A stretch of 64,000 bases of DNA from Planctomycetales bacterium 10988. Its GTDB lineage: Bacteria; Planctomycetota; Planctomycetia; Pirellulales; Pb10988. The notes beneath the pieces were generated by a model. It saw nothing but the letters and a program-made list of their open reading frames with translations, was not told where the DNA came from and searched no databases. Positions 27,824-37,714 of the stretch are shown one piece after another. The stretch is from positions 248,001 to 312,000 of the forward strand of contig CP043547.1 of assembly GCA_009664345.1 (NCBI GenBank), given 5' to 3'. Position 1 is the stretch's first letter. Each line of letters starts with the position of its first letter. The translations under genes were made by a program, and so were the position numbers.

Positions 27824-28507
27824 ATGGAAGTTTCTAAACGAAATCAAAAGACAGAAGGACGGAAAGCGGAAATCCTCCGCAACGCCATGAAGGTTTTTGC
27901 GAAAGAAGGATTTCATCGAACCGATGTTCAAGAGATCGCTGACTTGGCAAAAGTCGGCAAAGGGACCGTCTATCGGCATTTTGGCAATAAAGAAGAATTG
28001 TTTCTGGCCGTGGCCAAGTATTCCCTGGAGCAAATGGGGGAGTTCTTTATGGAGCATCTCAACGAGTGCCGGGAGCCTGCGGAGATCGCGGCTCAAGGGG
28101 ATATCGCGGAGTTGTTGCGGAGGATCGGTGTTGTCTATGCCCGGTATTACGAAACGCACCCTTACGCGGTAGAAATCATGATTCATGAGCGGGCGGAATT
28201 TCGCGAATCGGTCTTTCCCACGCATCTGATGTATCGAGCAGAGAACCGCTCCGGTCTTGATTCAATTCTCGCCGCGGCGGCGGAGGCTGGACAGATCCGA
28301 GCTTACGATGCTCAAAAGATTACAGATGCCCTGGCCGACTTGCTCTTCGGGTCGGTCGTGAATGGATGTCTGGCAGGTGGAAGTAAGAACCTTGTCGAGC
28401 GAGTCTCGCAAGCGATGGAAATGTTTATTCAAGGATTAATTCCTGAGCAAAATCACGCCCTGGAAACCAAGTCGGTGAAAAGTCCGAACAAGGAAGGTCG
28501 AAAATGA
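27824..28507 (+). CDS. TetR/AcrR family transcriptional repressor
   Basis: About 227 residues. The N-terminal helix-turn-helix reads 'ILRNAMKVFAKEGFHRTDVQ', 'EIADLAKVGKGTVYRHFGNK' and 'EELFLAVAKY'. The C-terminal ligand/dimer domain is divergent, as usual for the family. I place the start at the ATG at 27824, which has GAGAAGG upstream; an extension to 27737 would run through the promoter and operator described here. The stop overlaps the start of the adaptor gene (ATGA). It is probably a drug- or metabolite-responsive repressor of the adaptor and RND pump genes that follow. Confidence 0.92.
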   Translation: MEVSKRNQKTEGRKAEILRNAMKVFAKEGFHRTDVQEIADLAKVGKGTVYRHFGNKEELFLAVAKYSLEQMGEFFMEHLNECREPAEIAAQGDIAELLRRIGVVYARYYETHPYAVEIMIHERAEFRESVFPTHLMYRAENRSGLDSILAAAAEAGQIRAYDAQKITDALADLLFGSVVNGCLAGGSKNLVERVSQAMEMFIQGLIPEQNHALETKSVKSPNKEGRK

Positions 28508-29910
28508 GTCCGCTGTTCAAGAAACCCAAAGCCGGCTGGTGGAAAGGGATCGCCACGATTCTTACCCTCAGTGTCGTGGCGGGGCTTCTCTATTTCTATG
28601 TCAATCGAGAAGCAGCCTCCCCGCAAACTTCAGAGGAAGTCCCGCTTACCAAGGAACATCCTCCGCAGCCGATTCGCGTCGCATCGGCCACCCAAGAGAC
28701 GATCCGTGCCTGGGTCTTTGCCGAAGGGACCGCTCGTTCCGTGCAACGCGAATATCTCACCTTCGATCGAGCCGGGCGAGTCACCTTTGTTAAGAAGAGA
28801 GAAGACGGGGAGGATCTGCGAACCGGTGAAGAAGTGACCAAAGGAACGGTTCTGGCCCGGCTCGATGTGCGACAATACGAAAGCGAAATTGATTCCGCTG
28901 AGGCAAACGTGGCCGAAGCAAAGGCACAGCTCAACGTTGCTCAGTCCGATATCACCAAAGCTCAAACCCAGTACGATCTCGCCAACGCTCAGTTACGTCG
29001 GGCCAAACAATTGCGGAACAACCAAGCCATTTCCGATGCTGAATTTGAAGAAGCTGAGGCCACCCTCAAGGATGCCGAGGCAGGACAGACCGCTGCGAAT
29101 GTTAAGTTGCAAGCCTTAGAAGCAAGTGTTAAAGCCGCCCAAGCCAAGTTGCGACAGGCGGAACTGACGCTGGATGAAATTGAAATCGTCTCGCCCATCG
29201 ATGGGATTATCGCTTATCTCAATATCGAAGAGGGCTTTTACTTTACACAAAATAACATCCGCACCACCAGCGAATCCGAGGCACTTCAGACCATCCCCGT
29301 CGTGGTGATTGATCCCCGTCATTATGAAATCACCGTCGATGTTCCTGCCTATCAAGCCAATCGTCTCCAAGTAAATCAGGAAGTTCTCATCATCCCCGGC
29401 GATATGTCCGCCACGGCAGCCTTCGAAGGCGTAGTCAAGCCTGAAGAAGTAAACTCGAAAGAAGTCATCGACACTTGGAAAGTCCGTGGGACGGTCTTCT
29501 CCATCAATCCCGCGGTGAATCCCGGTGGCCGAAGTGTGCAAATGAAAATCCGCACTACCTCCGGGGCTGAGCAACTGAAAGATGGCATGTTCGTTGCCTG
29601 TTGGATTCAGGTTGAGAATAAAGAAAATGCCACCGTCGCTCCTTTCGATGCCTTTTTGTACGAAGAGAATCGCCCTTATGTATTTGTCATCGATCCTCAA
29701 CAGCCGACCGAAGAAGAGCCGGAAAAACACGATTTAGGCATCGTCCGCCGCGTGGATGTTCCGGTGGGAATTGAAAGTTTGACCAATCGCGAAATCATCG
29801 CTGGTGTCAATCCTGGCAAACTCTTGGCAACGGATGGACGTTATCGACTGGTCGATGGAGCACCTGTGCGTATTGTCAATTCTGAAATCCTGACACAGGC
29901 CCGAAAGTAA
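28504..29910 (+). CDS. RND efflux periplasmic adaptor (HlyD/MFP family)
   Basis: 468-residue membrane-fusion protein linking the RND pump to an outer-membrane channel. A single N-terminal membrane anchor ('GIATILTLSVVAGLLYFYVN') is followed by a lipoyl/barrel-sandwich half motif ('RVTFVKKREDGEDLRTGEEV'). A long alpha-helical hairpin comes next ('IDSAEANVAEAKAQLNVAQS', 'LRRAKQLRNNQAISDAEFEE'). The second lipoyl half ('IVSPIDGIIAYLNIEEGFYF') and beta-barrel and membrane-proximal domains complete it. It overlaps tetR by 4 bp (ATGA), so coupling is clear. The RND gene starts 76 bp downstream. No outer-membrane factor is encoded next to it. Confidence 0.93.
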   Translation: MSPLFKKPKAGWWKGIATILTLSVVAGLLYFYVNREAASPQTSEEVPLTKEHPPQPIRVASATQETIRAWVFAEGTARSVQREYLTFDRAGRVTFVKKREDGEDLRTGEEVTKGTVLARLDVRQYESEIDSAEANVAEAKAQLNVAQSDITKAQTQYDLANAQLRRAKQLRNNQAISDAEFEEAEATLKDAEAGQTAANVKLQALEASVKAAQAKLRQAELTLDEIEIVSPIDGIIAYLNIEEGFYFTQNNIRTTSESEALQTIPVVVIDPRHYEITVDVPAYQANRLQVNQEVLIIPGDMSATAAFEGVVKPEEVNSKEVIDTWKVRGTVFSINPAVNPGGRSVQMKIRTTSGAEQLKDGMFVACWIQVENKENATVAPFDAFLYEENRPYVFVIDPQQPTEEEPEKHDLGIVRRVDVPVGIESLTNREIIAGVNPGKLLATDGRYRLVDGAPVRIVNSEILTQARK

Positions 29911-29986
29911 GCAAACTTCACCTCTCACCGTTCCCTTGATCTATCTTCCAAAGGCTCCTTCTGGGCCGAGTTGTAGGGTAAGCGTT

Positions 29987-32900
29987 ATGAATACAGAGAA
30001 CCCCCCATCGGAAAATGTCGGCGAACAGCCAATAGAAACACCGGCATCCGGCCTCGCCAACTTCTTTATTTTACAGCCGACCTTTGGATTGCTCCTCTTG
30101 ATTTTAATTGTTTCAGGAGGGCTGATCGCCTACGACCTGTTAGTGAAAGAATCGCTCCCGGATTTAGAAATTCCCCAAGCGACGATTTCGACCTTCTGGC
30201 CGGGAGCCGATCCACAAACGATTGAGCAGGAAGTGACCGAGATCATCGAGAAAGAGCTGACCACACTCAAAGGGGTGAAAAAGATCAGTAGTGCTTCCTT
30301 TGATTCTTATTCTTTGATCGCCGTGGAGTTTCTCGCGGAAGCGGACCTCACGGAGTCGATGCAACTGCTTCGGGCAAAGATCGACGACGCAGAGCCAGAG
30401 CTTCCTCGCGACATCGAGCCGCCTACCGTCAATCAAGTCAGTGTCGATGACCGCCCCATCATCAGCGTGGCCCTGTATGGCGATGTGAATGCCGCGATTC
30501 TCAGCCGAACCGCACAAGAACTTGAGGATCGACTGGAGCGAGTTCAAGGGGTAAACGAAGTCAAAATCGGAGGACTTCGTGAAGAAGTCGTTCGTATCCA
30601 ACTCATCCCCGAGCGACTGGTGGCGTTGAGAATCTCACCAACAACCGTGCAAAACGCCGTGCAAATGGCGAATCGCGACATGCCCTGGGGAGAGATTGAC
30701 AGCACGGACCTTGGAGCCACCGCTCGGCTTTATGGAAGATTCCGTAAGATTGAAGACTTGCAAAATCTCCCCGTGGCACGCTTGGAAGGCCTCAGCGGTC
30801 GGGTTGTGCGGCTGAAGGAAATTGCCGATGTCCGCCGCGATCTGGAACGCGAAACCTCCCGGGCTTTTCTAAGTTTCGATGGTTCTCCTTTCAAGCGTTC
30901 CATCGAAATCTCTCTGACAAAAGTCCCCGGTGCCGACACCCTCATGGCAATCGAGCGAACCAAAGCGGAGCTTGCCCAGGCCCGTGCGGAGGAAAATTGG
31001 CCGTATGGGTTGGAATACAGAATCACAAGCGACCAATCCGAAAAGATTTGGGAATCCTTGCTCCGGGTGTTCGATAATGGTTGGCAGGCCATGCTGTGCG
31101 TATTTGTCATTCTTCTCTTCATGCTAACTTGGCGGGAGGCCCTCATCGCCGGGCTTTCGATTCCGCTTTCCTTTCTTGGAGCGATGGCCGCCGTGTGGAT
31201 GCTCGGCTACACGTTGAATGAAATGGTCCTCATCGGCATGGTCCTAGCTTTAGGACTCTTGGTCGATGTCTTTATTCTGATGATGGAAGGGATGCACGAA
31301 GGAATTTATGTGGAAGAGCTGACCTTCAGCCAGGCGGCGATGGCCACCGTGAAGCGATACGCATTGCCTGCCTTCGCCGGACAAATGACAACCATCCTTG
31401 CCCTGGTTCCTTTGATGGCGATCAGCGGGGTCTCTGGAAAGTTCATTCGCATCCTGCCGATTACCACGGTTTGTTGTCTCGTCATGAGTTTCATTGTGGC
31501 CTTGCTGATCGACATTCCTTTGTCGCGATATATCCTCAAAATTAAGGGACCCGGCGTAGATCGAAAGACCTTGATTGACCGCTTAACGATTTGGCTCTCA
31601 GACAAATTGAGTCGTTTTAATCTCCGCGTGACGGTTCCAAATCGCTGGATCGCTCTCCTCTGGGTGCTGGTCGTCGGGGGACTTTTTATCTATTCTGCTG
31701 GGGCGTTTGGCAGTTTGCCCATGCAAATGTATAGCGAACGTGATGGCCGCAACCTCGGAGTGACCATCGAGCTTCCCGCCGGTTCCACCATGGAAACTTC
31801 CCAAGCCGCCGCGGACCTTGTTGGTGAAATCCTTCGCAAGAAAGAGTATTTAGAAAGCACCGTCAAGCTTGTCGGGCAAAAAAGTCCGATGTCGCAAGGG
31901 GCCTTGTCCGATGCCCTTGCCCCGACGCAAGGGGATTACCTTGTCGGTTTTTCCAGTGTTTTCAAGCCTCGCGAGGATCGCGAATTCGCCGCCTATGATT
32001 ATACCGACGGACTTCGCGAAGAAATCGTGACGGCCATCGATCAACATTTCCCCGGAGCAACGGTGGTCCTAGCCGCGGAAACCGGCAAGCCCGAGGCTGG
32101 GGATCCGGTTCAGATCGAAGTGATCGGCGATGAGATGGAAGAACTTCGCGAGCTTTCCAAAGAAGTGCAACTTGCCCTGGAGAGTGTTCCAGGCACAGTC
32201 GACGTTCGTGACAATCTTGGCAATCTTCAGGTGGATATTCGCCTGGAACCAAAGCGGGAGGCCCTCGATTTTTACGAGATTGACCACAATGAGTTGGCAA
32301 ATCAAATCCGTTTTGCCATGAATGACCAGGAGATCGGCAAGTTTGCCGCGGATGGAGTTCAAGAAGACCTCGAAATCCGCCTGGGCACTGCTTGGCCAAG
32401 TCGGAATGGAGCCTTGGGAGGTCCGACGTTGATGGAAGAATTGCTGACAGTGCGTGCTTTTCAGCCGGATGGGAAAACCGTTCCGGTCATGGCGGTGGTT
32501 GAGCCGCACGTCAGTACTTCGCCCCTTTCGATCACCCGGCAAGATAGTCAACGATCGATCGTGGTTTCGAGTAAAGTTGATGACCGAGTCGTTTCGGAAA
32601 TCATTGACGAGGTGCTTCCTCAGCTTGAAGAGTTGCAAAAGAGCTGGCCGACAGGTTACTCCTACCATATCGCCGGCGAAGCCGAAGACACCGCCGAAAC
32701 CTTTGGTTCCACGGGGCAGGCAATGATGGTTGCCCTCTTCCTGGTCTTTGCTCTGCTGGTCCTTTTGTTCCGGTCGTTTACGCAACCCTTCATTATTGTG
32801 TTGACGATTCCCATGGCGATGATCGGAACGTTTTCAGGATTTTATTTTCTGGGAATGCCTTTTTCTTTCACCGCCATGATTGGGATCGTTTCGCTCATTG

Positions 32901-33220
32901 GGATTGTCGTCAATGATGCCATTGTGATGGTCGAGACCATGAACGAACATCTCCGCCAAGGAGCAACGATTCAACATGCTGCCGCCCAAGGTGGAGCCGA
33001 TCGTTTACGACCGATTGTCAGTACAAGTTTAACAACCACGATCGGTTTAATTCCTTTAATGTTAAGCGATCCGATGTGGGAACCACTTTGTCTTTCAATT
33101 ATCTTTGGATTAGCCGCATCAACATTTTTTTCATTATTGATCATCCCTTCTTTGTATTTTCTATTAACACAAAAAAGTAGACAATTAGAAAACGCTTCAG
33201 AGATCATTCGTGCAACCTAG
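29987..33220 (+). CDS. RND efflux transporter permease (AcrB-like)
   Basis: 1077-residue inner-membrane proton antiporter of the HAE-type RND family. TM1 ('FGLLLLILIVSGGLIAYDLL') is followed by the first porter domain ('FWPGADPQTIEQEVTEIIEK'). TM2-6 follow ('AMLCVFVILLFMLTWREALI', 'LIGMVLALGLLVDVFILMME' with the charged TM4). TM7, the second porter domain and TM8-12 complete it ('MMVALFLVFALLVLLFRSFT', 'IGIVVNDAIVMVETMNEHLR'). The start is the ATG at 29987 after AGGGTAAG; a TTG at 29936 is less likely. It would expel drugs, lipids or metabolites with the adaptor upstream. From about 33,000 the sequence turns sharply AT-rich (23% GC by hand count at 33,121-33,180), although the protein stays recognisable. 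Confidence 0.95.
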   Translation: MNTENPPSENVGEQPIETPASGLANFFILQPTFGLLLLILIVSGGLIAYDLLVKESLPDLEIPQATISTFWPGADPQTIEQEVTEIIEKELTTLKGVKKISSASFDSYSLIAVEFLAEADLTESMQLLRAKIDDAEPELPRDIEPPTVNQVSVDDRPIISVALYGDVNAAILSRTAQELEDRLERVQGVNEVKIGGLREEVVRIQLIPERLVALRISPTTVQNAVQMANRDMPWGEIDSTDLGATARLYGRFRKIEDLQNLPVARLEGLSGRVVRLKEIADVRRDLERETSRAFLSFDGSPFKRSIEISLTKVPGADTLMAIERTKAELAQARAEENWPYGLEYRITSDQSEKIWESLLRVFDNGWQAMLCVFVILLFMLTWREALIAGLSIPLSFLGAMAAVWMLGYTLNEMVLIGMVLALGLLVDVFILMMEGMHEGIYVEELTFSQAAMATVKRYALPAFAGQMTTILALVPLMAISGVSGKFIRILPITTVCCLVMSFIVALLIDIPLSRYILKIKGPGVDRKTLIDRLTIWLSDKLSRFNLRVTVPNRWIALLWVLVVGGLFIYSAGAFGSLPMQMYSERDGRNLGVTIELPAGSTMETSQAAADLVGEILRKKEYLESTVKLVGQKSPMSQGALSDALAPTQGDYLVGFSSVFKPREDREFAAYDYTDGLREEIVTAIDQHFPGATVVLAAETGKPEAGDPVQIEVIGDEMEELRELSKEVQLALESVPGTVDVRDNLGNLQVDIRLEPKREALDFYEIDHNELANQIRFAMNDQEIGKFAADGVQEDLEIRLGTAWPSRNGALGGPTLMEELLTVRAFQPDGKTVPVMAVVEPHVSTSPLSITRQDSQRSIVVSSKVDDRVVSEIIDEVLPQLEELQKSWPTGYSYHIAGEAEDTAETFGSTGQAMMVALFLVFALLVLLFRSFTQPFIIVLTIPMAMIGTFSGFYFLGMPFSFTAMIGIVSLIGIVVNDAIVMVETMNEHLRQGATIQHAAAQGGADRLRPIVSTSLTTTIGLIPLMLSDPMWEPLCLSIIFGLAASTFFSLLIIPSLYFLLTQKSRQLENASEIIRAT

Positions 33221-34902: not shown

Positions 34903-34941
34903 AAAAAAAGCCGCTGTCAGTATAATTTCACTGACAGCGGC
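34903..34941 (-). terminator. Rho-independent terminator of the SOD gene
   Basis: A 12-bp perfect stem, GCCGCTGTCAGT (34910-34921) with ACTGACAGCGGC (34930-34941), has seven A residues to its left, which become a U tract on the minus-strand transcript. It is 43 bp past the SOD stop. Confidence 0.92.
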
Positions 34942-34983: not shown

Positions 34984-35547
34984 TTACTTCCCTTCAGCGA
35001 CTCCGATGACTCCAAGGGCAACACGTGGTCCGGCGTCACCTGAGGGTTGACTTGTGAAGTCATCCGCTTCGCCATGGACGACGATTGCTCGACCTAATAC
35101 GAAGTGAATCTTTAAATCTTTCGAGAGGATATCAATCGTGGCAACACCTTCGGAATTTGCTGTAATATTTCCTAAGTCACCGACATGATGCTCGTGATCT
35201 TCTGGAGAGCCGTGTTTGTGGTCGGTTGGGTTGAAGTGTCCACCAGCAGATTTTCCCGCAGGGTCACGCAGGTCCCCATATTCATGAATATGAAAACCAT
35301 GTTCCCCCGGCGTCAGTCCGGTGACTTCCCCCGAAAAATGAACACCTTCGGATTGTTTCGTAAGCGTAATCGTTCCTTTTACCTGATTCCCTTCCGTTGG
35401 CATGAGAACGACCACGGCTGCGGTCGGCAGATCAGGTTGTTCATGCTCTCCATGGTGAGAATGTTTTTGATGATCCCCGGCAAGGCTCACCGTTGGGAAG
35501 GCAACCAAGGCGGCAAACATTGCGGAAAATGCTAAGTGTCTAAACAT
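34984..35547 (-). CDS. sodC: Cu/Zn superoxide dismutase family protein lacking cysteines
   Basis: Secreted enzyme converting superoxide to peroxide and oxygen. 187 residues from the ATG at 35547 (AGGAGA upstream), with a signal peptide ending VSLAGDH and a His-rich segment after it ('DHQKHSHHGEHE'). The metal ligands are in place: 'HGFHIHEYGD', 'GGHFNPTDHKHG', 'HHVGDLGN' and 'VVHGEADDF'. The active-site Arg is in 'GPRVA'. The mature sequence contains no cysteine: the usual Cys before SAGGHFNP is replaced (KSAGG) and the partner in ACGVIG reads ALGVIG, so the conserved intramolecular disulfide is absent. It has its own terminator. Confidence 0.93.
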   Translation of the reverse strand: MFRHLAFSAMFAALVAFPTVSLAGDHQKHSHHGEHEQPDLPTAAVVVLMPTEGNQVKGTITLTKQSEGVHFSGEVTGLTPGEHGFHIHEYGDLRDPAGKSAGGHFNPTDHKHGSPEDHEHHVGDLGNITANSEGVATIDILSKDLKIHFVLGRAIVVHGEADDFTSQPSGDAGPRVALGVIGVAEGK

Positions 35548-35773
35548 AATAAGTAATCTCCTTTTGTGAAAATCAAAATCATTGGCGGTGTCCAAGTTTC
35601 TCAAGGTTTCAGATTCACGGAACCTCGAAAAAAACGATTGGACAACCGCCGATTTGGTTGATCTATCATCATACCGCCTGGATCACTGACAAAATTCAAA
35701 GTACCAGGCTAAATACGACGATCACAACAGGAGATTTAAAAAGCAAACCTGATGCCGGATATACTCTGTTAGA

Positions 35774-37714
35774 TTAATCCTCGGTCTTTTCTTTTGTGAG
35801 GAGAGAAACGACTACCAGGGTCAGGAAACCAAGCGGAATGGTGATAATGCCGGGTTGGCTAAAGGGAGCCAGGGCATCTTCAGCAGGAAGGCCATAAACT
35901 TTGGAATAGGTATCCCCACTCAGCAAAATCCAACCAAGTGAAGAAGTCATTCCCACGATAACAGCGGAAATGATTCCCTGGCGAGTTACTCCTTTCCAAA
36001 AGAGAGGAACCACCAGCGAAGGGAGATTTGCCGAAGCCGCCACACTAAAGGCCCAACCAACCAAGTAGCTAACATTTAACTTTTCAAACAGAATGCCAAG
36101 CACAATCGCAATCCCGCCAACGGCCACCGAGGCGATCTTCGCTAAGCGAACTTTTTCATGGTCGGTCATCTCAACCGTTCGGAAGTTCGACACAAGGTCG
36201 TGAGTCACCGCCCCGGCGGATGCCAAAATCAAACCGCTTACGGTACCCAGCACGGTGGTAAAGGCGATGGCGGAAATAATCGCAAAGAGCAGTTCGCTGA
36301 TACTTTTCGCCAAGAGCGGAGCGGCCATGTTGCTATTGGTCACATCCATCGATCCACTCGTCATCGCCCCAAGACCGAGATAGAGCGTGAGCACATAGAA
36401 GAAGCCGATACTCGCGATCCCCACGATGGTACTCTTGCGGGCACTGGCCTCGTCCTTCACGGTATAGTAACGAATGAGAATGTGTGGCAGAGACGCCGTT
36501 CCGCAGAAAAGGGCCAACATAAGCGAGAGAAAGTTCAGTTTATCCAGCCAATGATCACTACGAATTCCGGCAAAGCGAGGATGTTCCCCGGGGCGTAGAA
36601 TTTGGCTCCCCGGCGTCGGCTTTTGATAATAGACCGTCAAGGATTGTCCTTCGTCATCCACTCCCGGTTGACTTGCCCAAAGAACGACTTCACTCTCTTG
36701 AAGTGTACTAAAAAACGATAGCGGTCCGAGCGGTCCCGTTTTTTCTTGCCCATCCGGAAGTTCACTAATATAGCCGATGGGATGCAACTCAGGTTCGCCT
36801 TTCTGCGTCCCTTTGACTTGACCATTGACCAATGTTTCGCCGGAAGGAGAAGTCCCGACCGTTTGTGCTTCCAAAAGGTACTTTTCGTTTTCGTTCTTTG
36901 AATAGACACTCCAGTACGAAGGTCGTTCCAGTTTGGCATCTTCGAAGCGAAGAATGGTTGTCTTATCAGAACTTAACGATTCAACCTTTTCCCCTTCAGT
37001 AAGCTCGCTCGGGAGGTCCCACTCTTCAAAAGTAGCTTTTGTATCAAAGGGGCCGTATTCCCGAAAGGCATAGCCATCGATTCCCCCCGGTGCTGTTTCA
37101 AAGCCGCGTCCGAGAAGGATCACGGTCAGAATCAAGCTAAAGACAACGAGCAGTGAGCCTTTGAGGAACTGAACCCAAGTCGTTGAAACCATCCCGGCGG
37201 TGACGACGATCACAATGACGATCGCCCCGACCATCAACACACCAACCCAATGCGGGAAGCCAAGCAGTGGTTGAATAAGAACTCCGGCACCGACCATCTG
37301 CGGAATCAAATAGAACATACTCACTGCGAGGGTGCTGATTCCTGCCGCGAGGCGAATTCCACGCGAGCCATATTTTGCATCAAGGGCATCAGCAAACGTG
37401 AACTTGCCCAGGCGTTTCATCGGTTCGGCCACCACAAACAGGGCGACAATCCAACCTGCCAGATATCCGATCGAATAGAGAAAACCATCATAGCCATAAA
37501 AGGCAATCATCCCGCAAATACCGAGAAACGACGCTGCCGAGAGGTAATCTCCGGCGAACGCCACGCCATTGATAAACCACGGGATCTGGCCATGTGCCGC
37601 AAAATAGCCTTGGGAGGATTTGGCTTTTCCGCCCAAATAAAAACTAAGGCCAAGGGTAAAGCCCACAAAGAGCAAGAAAATCACAACCGCCACCATGGAG
37701 GGTTCGTAAATCAT
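35774..37714 (-). CDS. ActP-like sodium/solute (monocarboxylate) symporter
   Basis: 646-residue member of the sodium:solute symporter family, closest by eye to acetate permease ActP, which takes up acetate or related short acids. Early helices and conserved blocks include 'SSQGYFAAHGQIPWFINGVA', 'GDYLSAASFLGICGMIAFYG' and 'GKFTFADALDAKYGSRGIRL'. The core continues with 'FCGTASLPHILIRYYTVKDE', 'VLGTVSGLILASAGAVTHDL' and 'WAFSVAASANLPSLVVPLFW'. It is about 100 residues longer than ActP because of a hydrophilic segment around residues 215-385 between helices. Its ATG overlaps the stop of the DUF485 gene (ATGA), the usual pairing for this family. Confidence 0.9.
   Translation of the reverse strand: MIYEPSMVAVVIFLLFVGFTLGLSFYLGGKAKSSQGYFAAHGQIPWFINGVAFAGDYLSAASFLGICGMIAFYGYDGFLYSIGYLAGWIVALFVVAEPMKRLGKFTFADALDAKYGSRGIRLAAGISTLAVSMFYLIPQMVGAGVLIQPLLGFPHWVGVLMVGAIVIVIVVTAGMVSTTWVQFLKGSLLVVFSLILTVILLGRGFETAPGGIDGYAFREYGPFDTKATFEEWDLPSELTEGEKVESLSSDKTTILRFEDAKLERPSYWSVYSKNENEKYLLEAQTVGTSPSGETLVNGQVKGTQKGEPELHPIGYISELPDGQEKTGPLGPLSFFSTLQESEVVLWASQPGVDDEGQSLTVYYQKPTPGSQILRPGEHPRFAGIRSDHWLDKLNFLSLMLALFCGTASLPHILIRYYTVKDEASARKSTIVGIASIGFFYVLTLYLGLGAMTSGSMDVTNSNMAAPLLAKSISELLFAIISAIAFTTVLGTVSGLILASAGAVTHDLVSNFRTVEMTDHEKVRLAKIASVAVGGIAIVLGILFEKLNVSYLVGWAFSVAASANLPSLVVPLFWKGVTRQGIISAVIVGMTSSLGWILLSGDTYSKVYGLPAEDALAPFSQPGIITIPLGFLTLVVVSLLTKEKTED

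What the first reader, a model, noticed from the sequence alone, without database searches (positions are those of the whole stretch)
34984..35547. Cu/Zn SOD with all metal ligands but no cysteine
The copper and zinc ligands and active-site Arg are present, but both Cys of the conserved disulfide are replaced (KSAGG and ALGVIG). The disulfide normally stabilises the subunit and the active loop. A His-rich segment after the leader may load metal.
Basis: partly seen in the sequence, partly recalled or inferred. Interest (0 to 1): 0.55.

Follow-up and report, generated by a model that had tools for sequence, protein, structure and literature searches.

The report
Disulfide-free planctomycete copper-zinc superoxide dismutase
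A bacterial antioxidant enzyme (copper-zinc superoxide dismutase) that lacks the usual stabilising disulfide bond is really encoded here, but this is the normal, already published form of the enzyme in this group of bacteria.

Summary
Window 34984-35547 (-) encodes a 187-residue SodC with a leader, every Cu/Zn ligand, the active-site Arg and no cysteine at all. The two relevant codons (Leu93 CTG, Leu178 CTT) are 3 and 2 base changes from Cys, so a sequencing slip is not the cause. It is not unusual for its lineage: of the SodC domains found in sampled genomes of the window's class, 46 of 48 lack both cysteines, and the window protein sits in a starred clade of 26 rows that all lack them. Wright et al. 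2021 (PMC8382915) already defined such enzymes as Group 3b, mainly Planctomycetes, with the disulfide replaced by a hydrophobic contact. Furukawa et al. [quoted passage not shown] Most likely this is an ordinary active periplasmic SOD whose loop IV is held to strand beta-8 by Leu93/Leu178 packing; that contact is inferred, not measured. Lack of disulfide machinery is not the likely reason: the genome carries a VKOR-thioredoxin/DsbA fusion. Added here: the class-wide tally, occurrence in Verrucomicrobiota and the phylum of L061, and relatives with cysteines crowded in loop IV instead.

The parts
34984..35547 (-). sodC CDS, 187 aa, Cys-free Cu/Zn superoxide dismutase
   Evidence: Pfam PF00080 E 1.4e-42
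35479..35547 (-). likely signal peptide, residues 1-23 (boundary by eye)
   Evidence: hydrophobic stretch ending SLA in the translation; no predictor run
35437..35478 (-). His-rich N-terminal extension, residues 24-37 (5 His)
   Evidence: mostly low pLDDT
34993..35421 (-). CuZnSOD beta-barrel domain, residues 43-185
   Evidence: AlphaFold model and PDB match 7b4o, Z 27.2, rmsd 1.0 over 147 residues
35269..35271 (-). Leu93 (CTG) where Cys-bearing bacterial relatives have the loop IV Cys (GDC)
35254..35256 (-). Gly98, at the eukaryotic-type (human Cys57) loop Cys position
   Evidence: by eye, counted from the SAG motif in the alignment to human SOD1
35014..35016 (-). Leu178 (CTT) at the beta-8 Cys position (human Cys146)
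35558..35563 (-). Shine-Dalgarno-like AAGGAG, 10 nt before the ATG
   Evidence: sequence
34910..34941 (-). terminator-like hairpin plus T tract
   Evidence: 1 found, 1.2 expected in shuffles, so the scan alone is no evidence; position and 13-pair stem are the argument

Best explanation
An ordinary, secreted, catalytically competent Cu/Zn superoxide dismutase of the published disulfide-free planctomycete type (Group 3b). Shown by sequence: complete Cu and Zn ligand sets, bridging His, active-site Arg, SOD fold (predicted), no Cys. Inferred: loop IV is tethered to strand beta-8 by hydrophobic packing (Leu93 against Leu178) in place of the disulfide; it dimerises through the eukaryote-like (E-class) face, since the human Gly150 equivalent is kept; it needs no oxidative-folding step; and the flexible His-rich tail helps capture Cu or Zn in the periplasm.
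For: All eight ligand/Arg positions intact in the window protein and in 81 of 84 distinct domains lacking both Cys. 46 of 48 SodC domains in sampled genomes of the same class lack both Cys. Starred 26-row all-Cys-less clade containing the window protein. Hydrophobic pairs predominate at the two positions: L/V 22, L/L 9, L/F 7, V/V 5 among the 84. Gly150 equivalent is Gly in 75 of 84 Cys-less against 12 of 129 Cys-bearing domains. AlphaFold block means of pLDDT 93-99 over residues 41-180; best PDB match is BbCuZnSOD 7b4o, an E-class Group 3a enzyme. Wright 2021 describes Group 3b as mainly planctomycete enzymes without the disulfide, replaced by a hydrophobic interaction. Furukawa 2023 showed activity of a Cys-less CuZnSOD and decreased activity on mutating the replacing contacts.
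Against: No activity, metal content or oligomer data for this protein; none for a Group 3b enzyme in the passages I read. The loop tetrad here is GDLR, not the GDXT/S pattern that Wright links to E-class dimers. Not every pair is hydrophobic (V/Q 6, L/Q 5, Q/T 3, V/H 1 of 84), so a simple packing rule does not cover all relatives. Wright 2021 expects weakened dimers for this group. The Gly150 contrast is confounded by ancestry.
Confidence: 0.88

Rival explanations
1. A SOD-like protein that binds metal but no longer works mainly as a dismutase (for example a copper or zinc carrier), the disulfide having been lost by relaxed selection.
For: The Cys pair is absent; the His-rich tail could hold metal. 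Bacillus YojM is a precedent for inactive SOD-like proteins (passage in PMC10432803).
Against: All Cu, Zn and Arg positions are kept here and in 81 of 84 Cys-less relatives, unlike YojM, whose copper site is disrupted; it is the genome's only CuZnSOD.
Confidence: 0.08
2. The cysteines were lost because the organism cannot make disulfides outside the cytoplasm, as suggested for Firmicutes.
For: Furukawa 2023 argues along these lines for Paenibacillus (passages); VKOR was not found in 12 of 32 tested planctomycete genomes with only Cys-less SodC.
Against: The window's genome carries a VKOR domain joined to a thioredoxin/DsbA-like domain with CYTCPHC. VKOR was found in 20 of 32 Cys-less genomes, 3 of 14 Cys-bearing and 2 of 5 one-sided ones (Fisher p 0.023 for the first two, not corrected for relatedness). 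These are 51 genomes that I picked from the 105 other planctomycete genomes with a match; the own genome is not among them. DsbB was not searched.
Confidence: 0.03
3. Sequencing or assembly error.
For: None found.
Against: Codons 3 and 2 changes from Cys; same state in 46 of 48 class members.
Confidence: 0.005

Closest known systems
Group 3b eukaryotic-like bacterial CuZnSOD (Wright et al. 2021, PMC8382915; passages and section 6 read)
   Same: Mainly planctomycete, mostly predicted secreted, extended N-terminus, no intrasubunit disulfide cysteines, E-class-like sequence
   Different: No essential difference found; the window protein is a further member. Wright has seven; their supplementary sequences were not seen
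Group 3a BbCuZnSOD (PDB 7b4o/7b4p)
   Same: Best structural match and best single-domain sequence match in the PDB: 47% identity, Z 27.2
   Different: Keeps the GDC...ACGVIG disulfide cysteines
PaSOD of Paenibacillus lautus (Furukawa et al. 2023, PMC10432803; abstract, passages and section 8 read)
   Same: CuZnSOD domain without any Cys, experimentally active, disulfide replaced by hydrophobic contacts
   Different: PaSOD has an N-terminal PF07833 dimerisation domain, absent here, and uses Phe179/Gly264 plus Ile174, where this protein has Leu178 and Asp92 at the beta-8 and Ile174 places
Human SOD1 / periplasmic SodC
   Same: Same fold and ligands; about 47% identity to human SOD1
   Different: Both have the disulfide
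SodC with His-rich N-terminus (Battistoni et al. 2001, known only as cited in PMC8382915)
   Same: His-rich extension before the SOD domain
   Different: Those are P-class enzymes, which carry the disulfide

Membership tests
Cu/Zn superoxide dismutase (PF00080) | Sod_Cu domain over the curated cut-off | tested here: met
   145.7 bits against 28.9
Cu/Zn superoxide dismutase (PF00080) | four Cu His, Zn His/His/His/Asp, active-site Arg | tested here: met
   HHHHHDHR at the aligned positions
Cu/Zn superoxide dismutase (PF00080) | intrasubunit disulfide cysteines (usual, not defining: absent from PaSOD and Group 3b) | tested here: not met
   0 Cys in 187 residues
Cu/Zn superoxide dismutase (PF00080) | dismutase activity | not testable with these tools
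   needs the protein
Group 3b bacterial CuZnSOD (Wright 2021) | no intrasubunit disulfide cysteines | tested here: met
Group 3b bacterial CuZnSOD (Wright 2021) | planctomycete origin in the main, extended N-terminus without CXC motif | tested here: met
   the 12 best hits, L002-L013, bear planctomycete names (some genera placed from recall); extension residues 24-42, no Cys
Group 3b bacterial CuZnSOD (Wright 2021) | 17-residue disulfide subloop, one longer than the eukaryotic one | tested here: inconclusive
   HIH-to-HFNP span is 22 residues, as in 71 of 84 Cys-less domains; Wright's own boundaries were not reproduced
Group 3b bacterial CuZnSOD (Wright 2021) | groups with Wright's seven sequences in a tree | not tested
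   their accession list is in a supplement that was not read
PaSOD type (Furukawa 2023) | N-terminal PF07833 domain fused to a Cys-less SOD domain | tested here: not met
   only PF00080 found
NCBIfam SodC equivalogs NF047632 / NF007628 / NF047631 | score over the curated cut-off | tested here: not met
   82.1 of 250, 67.2 of 165, 38.8 of 230 bits

The most novel reading that the evidence does not exclude
The disulfide-free state is a near-fixed, old trait of SodC in the window's class (Planctomycetia by inference) and recurs in Verrucomicrobiota and the phylum of L061. It is linked to a His-rich metal-capturing tail and to an E-class dimer, giving a periplasmic SOD that matures by metal binding alone. 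Some relatives moved the cysteines into loop IV (for example GDCNCADGKC with no beta-8 Cys), a candidate alternative intra-loop disulfide.
Probability: 0.3. Interest if true: 0.4.

Novelty: new member of a known kind. Interest (0 to 1): 0.17.

Why it matters
The CuZnSOD disulfide is usually presented as a hallmark of the fold (so in the 2026 review PMC13017621, passages seen), and its failure matters in human SOD1 disease (recalled). Natural enzymes that do without it show how the fold can be held otherwise. The kind itself is already in print. Furukawa 2023 described Cys-less CuZnSOD as found only in Paenibacillaceae; Wright 2021 and the counts here contradict that.

Tried and rejected
Sequencing error: rejected by codon distance and conservation. 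Missing disulfide machinery: disfavoured by the VKOR fusion in the own genome and by the VKOR counts. Conserved gene neighbourhood: none found. Eight neighbouring proteins searched with tblastn at E 1e-10 in loci L001-L110 hit only the window's own locus, apart from one 22%-identity RND match in L010; 30 of these 110 loci (L001, L082-L110) carry only about 1.5 kb of flank or less, and loci L111 onward were not searched. PaSOD could not be placed in the tree because its sequence was not obtained; I recognised no PaSOD entry among the rows shown (60 of 156, 50 of 600, 50), which shows nothing either way. Single origin of the trait: the quick tree needs at least 13 changes for the Cys-less label against the other two groups, at least 5 forced by starred branches, but 138 columns for 143 rows resolve little and direction is not told. 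A search of the window's own family held no genome but its own.

Rows dropped before counts: three partial phylum matches were not fetched (G342:C18, G314, G313), so 104 of the 106 genomes with a match gave a domain. For the tree the 223 distinct domains were clustered at 85% identity (same label) to 143, leaving out L188 and any row with under 90 aligned residues. L144 repeats L111 and is counted once in the 61. L206 and L218-L220 are partial and left out of the two further tallies.

Full report
What is there. The minus strand at 34984-35547 encodes a 187-residue protein with a leader peptide (by eye), a His-rich stretch (GDHQKHSHHGEHEQ) and one Sod_Cu domain. It has a good ribosome-binding site, a terminator-like hairpin just downstream, and no cysteine anywhere. 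All Cu and Zn ligands and the active-site Arg are present. The genome holds no second PF00080 match. Neighbours are a polysaccharide pyruvyl transferase-like gene and an ActP-like symporter with a DUF485 partner; no relatives of them were found next to sodC in loci L001-L110 other than the window's own.

Where it comes from. The tools give codes, not names. A genome of the same order (G092, L102) has a contig of exactly the length of the Blastopirellula marina contig of L010 (4267655), so the order is that of Blastopirellula; the class name Planctomycetia is recalled.

The cysteine positions. In Cys-bearing bacterial relatives the loop IV cysteine is in GDC and the strand beta-8 cysteine in A-C-G-V-I or a close variant. 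The window protein has GDL (Leu93) and ALGVIG (Leu178). The codons are 3 and 2 base changes from Cys.

How common it is. I collected 223 distinct SodC domains from 189 loci. [quoted passage not shown] At the two exact columns the counts are 129 both, 88 neither, 5 loop only and 1 beta-8 only. The 223 are not a fair sample of bacteria, since they come from a search with this protein (the best 80 of 422 loci) and from planctomycete genomes. Of the 84, 58 have no Cys at all in the aligned core and 26 have one or more elsewhere. In sampled genomes of the window's class, 46 of 48 domains (45 genomes) have neither; the two exceptions come from one genus of the same order (L082, L083). In the rest of the phylum the counts are 25 neither, 26 both and 10 one-sided of 61. 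CuZnSOD itself was found in 33 of 196 genomes of the order and 79 of 392 of the phylum, so most of the sampled genomes have none. The named planctomycete TBK1r (L022) keeps both cysteines and is outside these counts. Outside the phylum, 7 of 13 complete domains from the phylum of L019 (Verrucomicrobiota; 14 of 288 genomes had a match) have neither, and 4 of 11 from the phylum of L061 (13 of 149 genomes), with 6 both and 1 one-sided. The genomes that led me there (those of L019, L061 and L056) are among these counts, one in the first and two in the second.

Tree. In a quick maximum-likelihood tree of 143 representatives, with the cysteine columns left out, the window protein is in a starred clade (SH-aLRT 99) of 26 rows, all without the cysteines. 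Across the tree the Cys-less label needs at least 13 changes, at least 5 of them forced by starred branches. Few columns support it, so the number of losses is open.

Structure. AlphaFold gives a confident SOD barrel (pLDDT block means 93-99 over residues 41-180) with a low-confidence N-terminus. The best solved match is the Bacteroidetes CuZnSOD 7b4o: Z 27.2, rmsd 1.0 over 147 residues, 47% identity; rows below it with human and bovine SOD1 are close behind (Z 25-26.5). 7b4o is Wright's Group 3a enzyme, an E-class dimer. The Gly150 equivalent, which marks E-class dimers, is Gly here and in 75 of 84 Cys-less domains, against 12 of 129 Cys-bearing ones; this contrast is confounded by ancestry.

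What holds loop IV. The two positions are mostly filled by hydrophobic pairs (L/V, L/L, L/F, V/V), though some are not (V/Q, L/Q, Q/T). Wright 2021 states that in Group 3b the disulfide is replaced by a hydrophobic interaction, as in yeast CCS. Furukawa 2023 showed in PaSOD that mutating the replacing residues lowers activity and resistance to EDTA at 45 C. So the mechanism is suggested by precedent, but the Leu93-Leu178 contact itself was not measured.

Why no disulfide. The genome has a VKOR domain joined to a thioredoxin/DsbA-like domain with a CYTCPHC motif (Pfam VKOR, Thioredoxin_4 and DSBA all over cut-off), so a disulfide-making route is likely available. VKOR was found in 20 of 32 genomes with Cys-less SodC, 3 of 14 with Cys-bearing SodC and 2 of 5 one-sided. 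I picked these 51 from the 105 other planctomycete genomes with a match; relatedness was not corrected for and DsbB was not searched. This does not favour the idea that lack of machinery drove the loss.

His-rich tail. In the 19-residue stretch before the barrel, at least 3 His fall in 35 of 84 Cys-less, 5 of 129 Cys-bearing and 2 of 10 one-sided domains, but 20 of 84 Cys-less have none. The stretch was cut from stop-to-stop frames without setting start codons, and ancestry was not corrected for. Metal loading is plausible by analogy with His-rich SodC proteins (Battistoni 2001, as cited in Wright 2021) and untested.

Literature. Wright et al. 2021 (PMC8382915; passages and section 6 read) already defines these enzymes. 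Furukawa et al. 2023 (PMC10432803; abstract, passages and section 8 read) gives the experimental precedent in Paenibacillus and describes the trait as found only in Paenibacillaceae, which Wright 2021 and the counts here contradict. Two more papers were seen in passages only: PMC12362111 and the review PMC13017621. Searches were made; (Verrucomicrobi plus 'without disulfide') found no paper, which is a narrow test, so I do not claim that the wider distribution is unpublished.

Verdict.

Noticed in passing
L111:173-1252 (-): One open frame of 360 residues with two tandem SOD domains; both have three Cys in loop IV (GDCNCADGKC, GDCNCGDGKC) and none on beta-8: candidate intra-loop disulfide.
   Followed up: partly
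L117, L150, L151, L181, L182: Further SodC with two or three Cys inside loop IV and no beta-8 Cys (such as GDCNCDDGKC, GDVTCPDGKC, GYCGSSDALC).
   Followed up: partly
L125 and L207: SodC with a lone Cys on beta-8 and none in loop IV, a possible intermediate state.
   Followed up: no
L190:1384-2769 (+), window's own genome: VKOR domain joined to a thioredoxin/DsbA-like domain with CYTCPHC, next to leuCD-like genes (named by eye).
   Followed up: partly
L194, L196, L201: Verrucomicrobiota SodC with Leu/Gly at the two Cys positions; PaSOD also has Gly at its beta-8 position.
   Followed up: no
window 28504-33220 (+): RND pump and membrane-fusion protein pair; substrate not clear, since every NCBIfam match of the pump is under its cut-off.
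   Followed up: no
window 35774-37714 (-): ActP-like symporter whose SSF match falls in two stretches, as if split by an insert, with a DUF485 partner.
   Followed up: no
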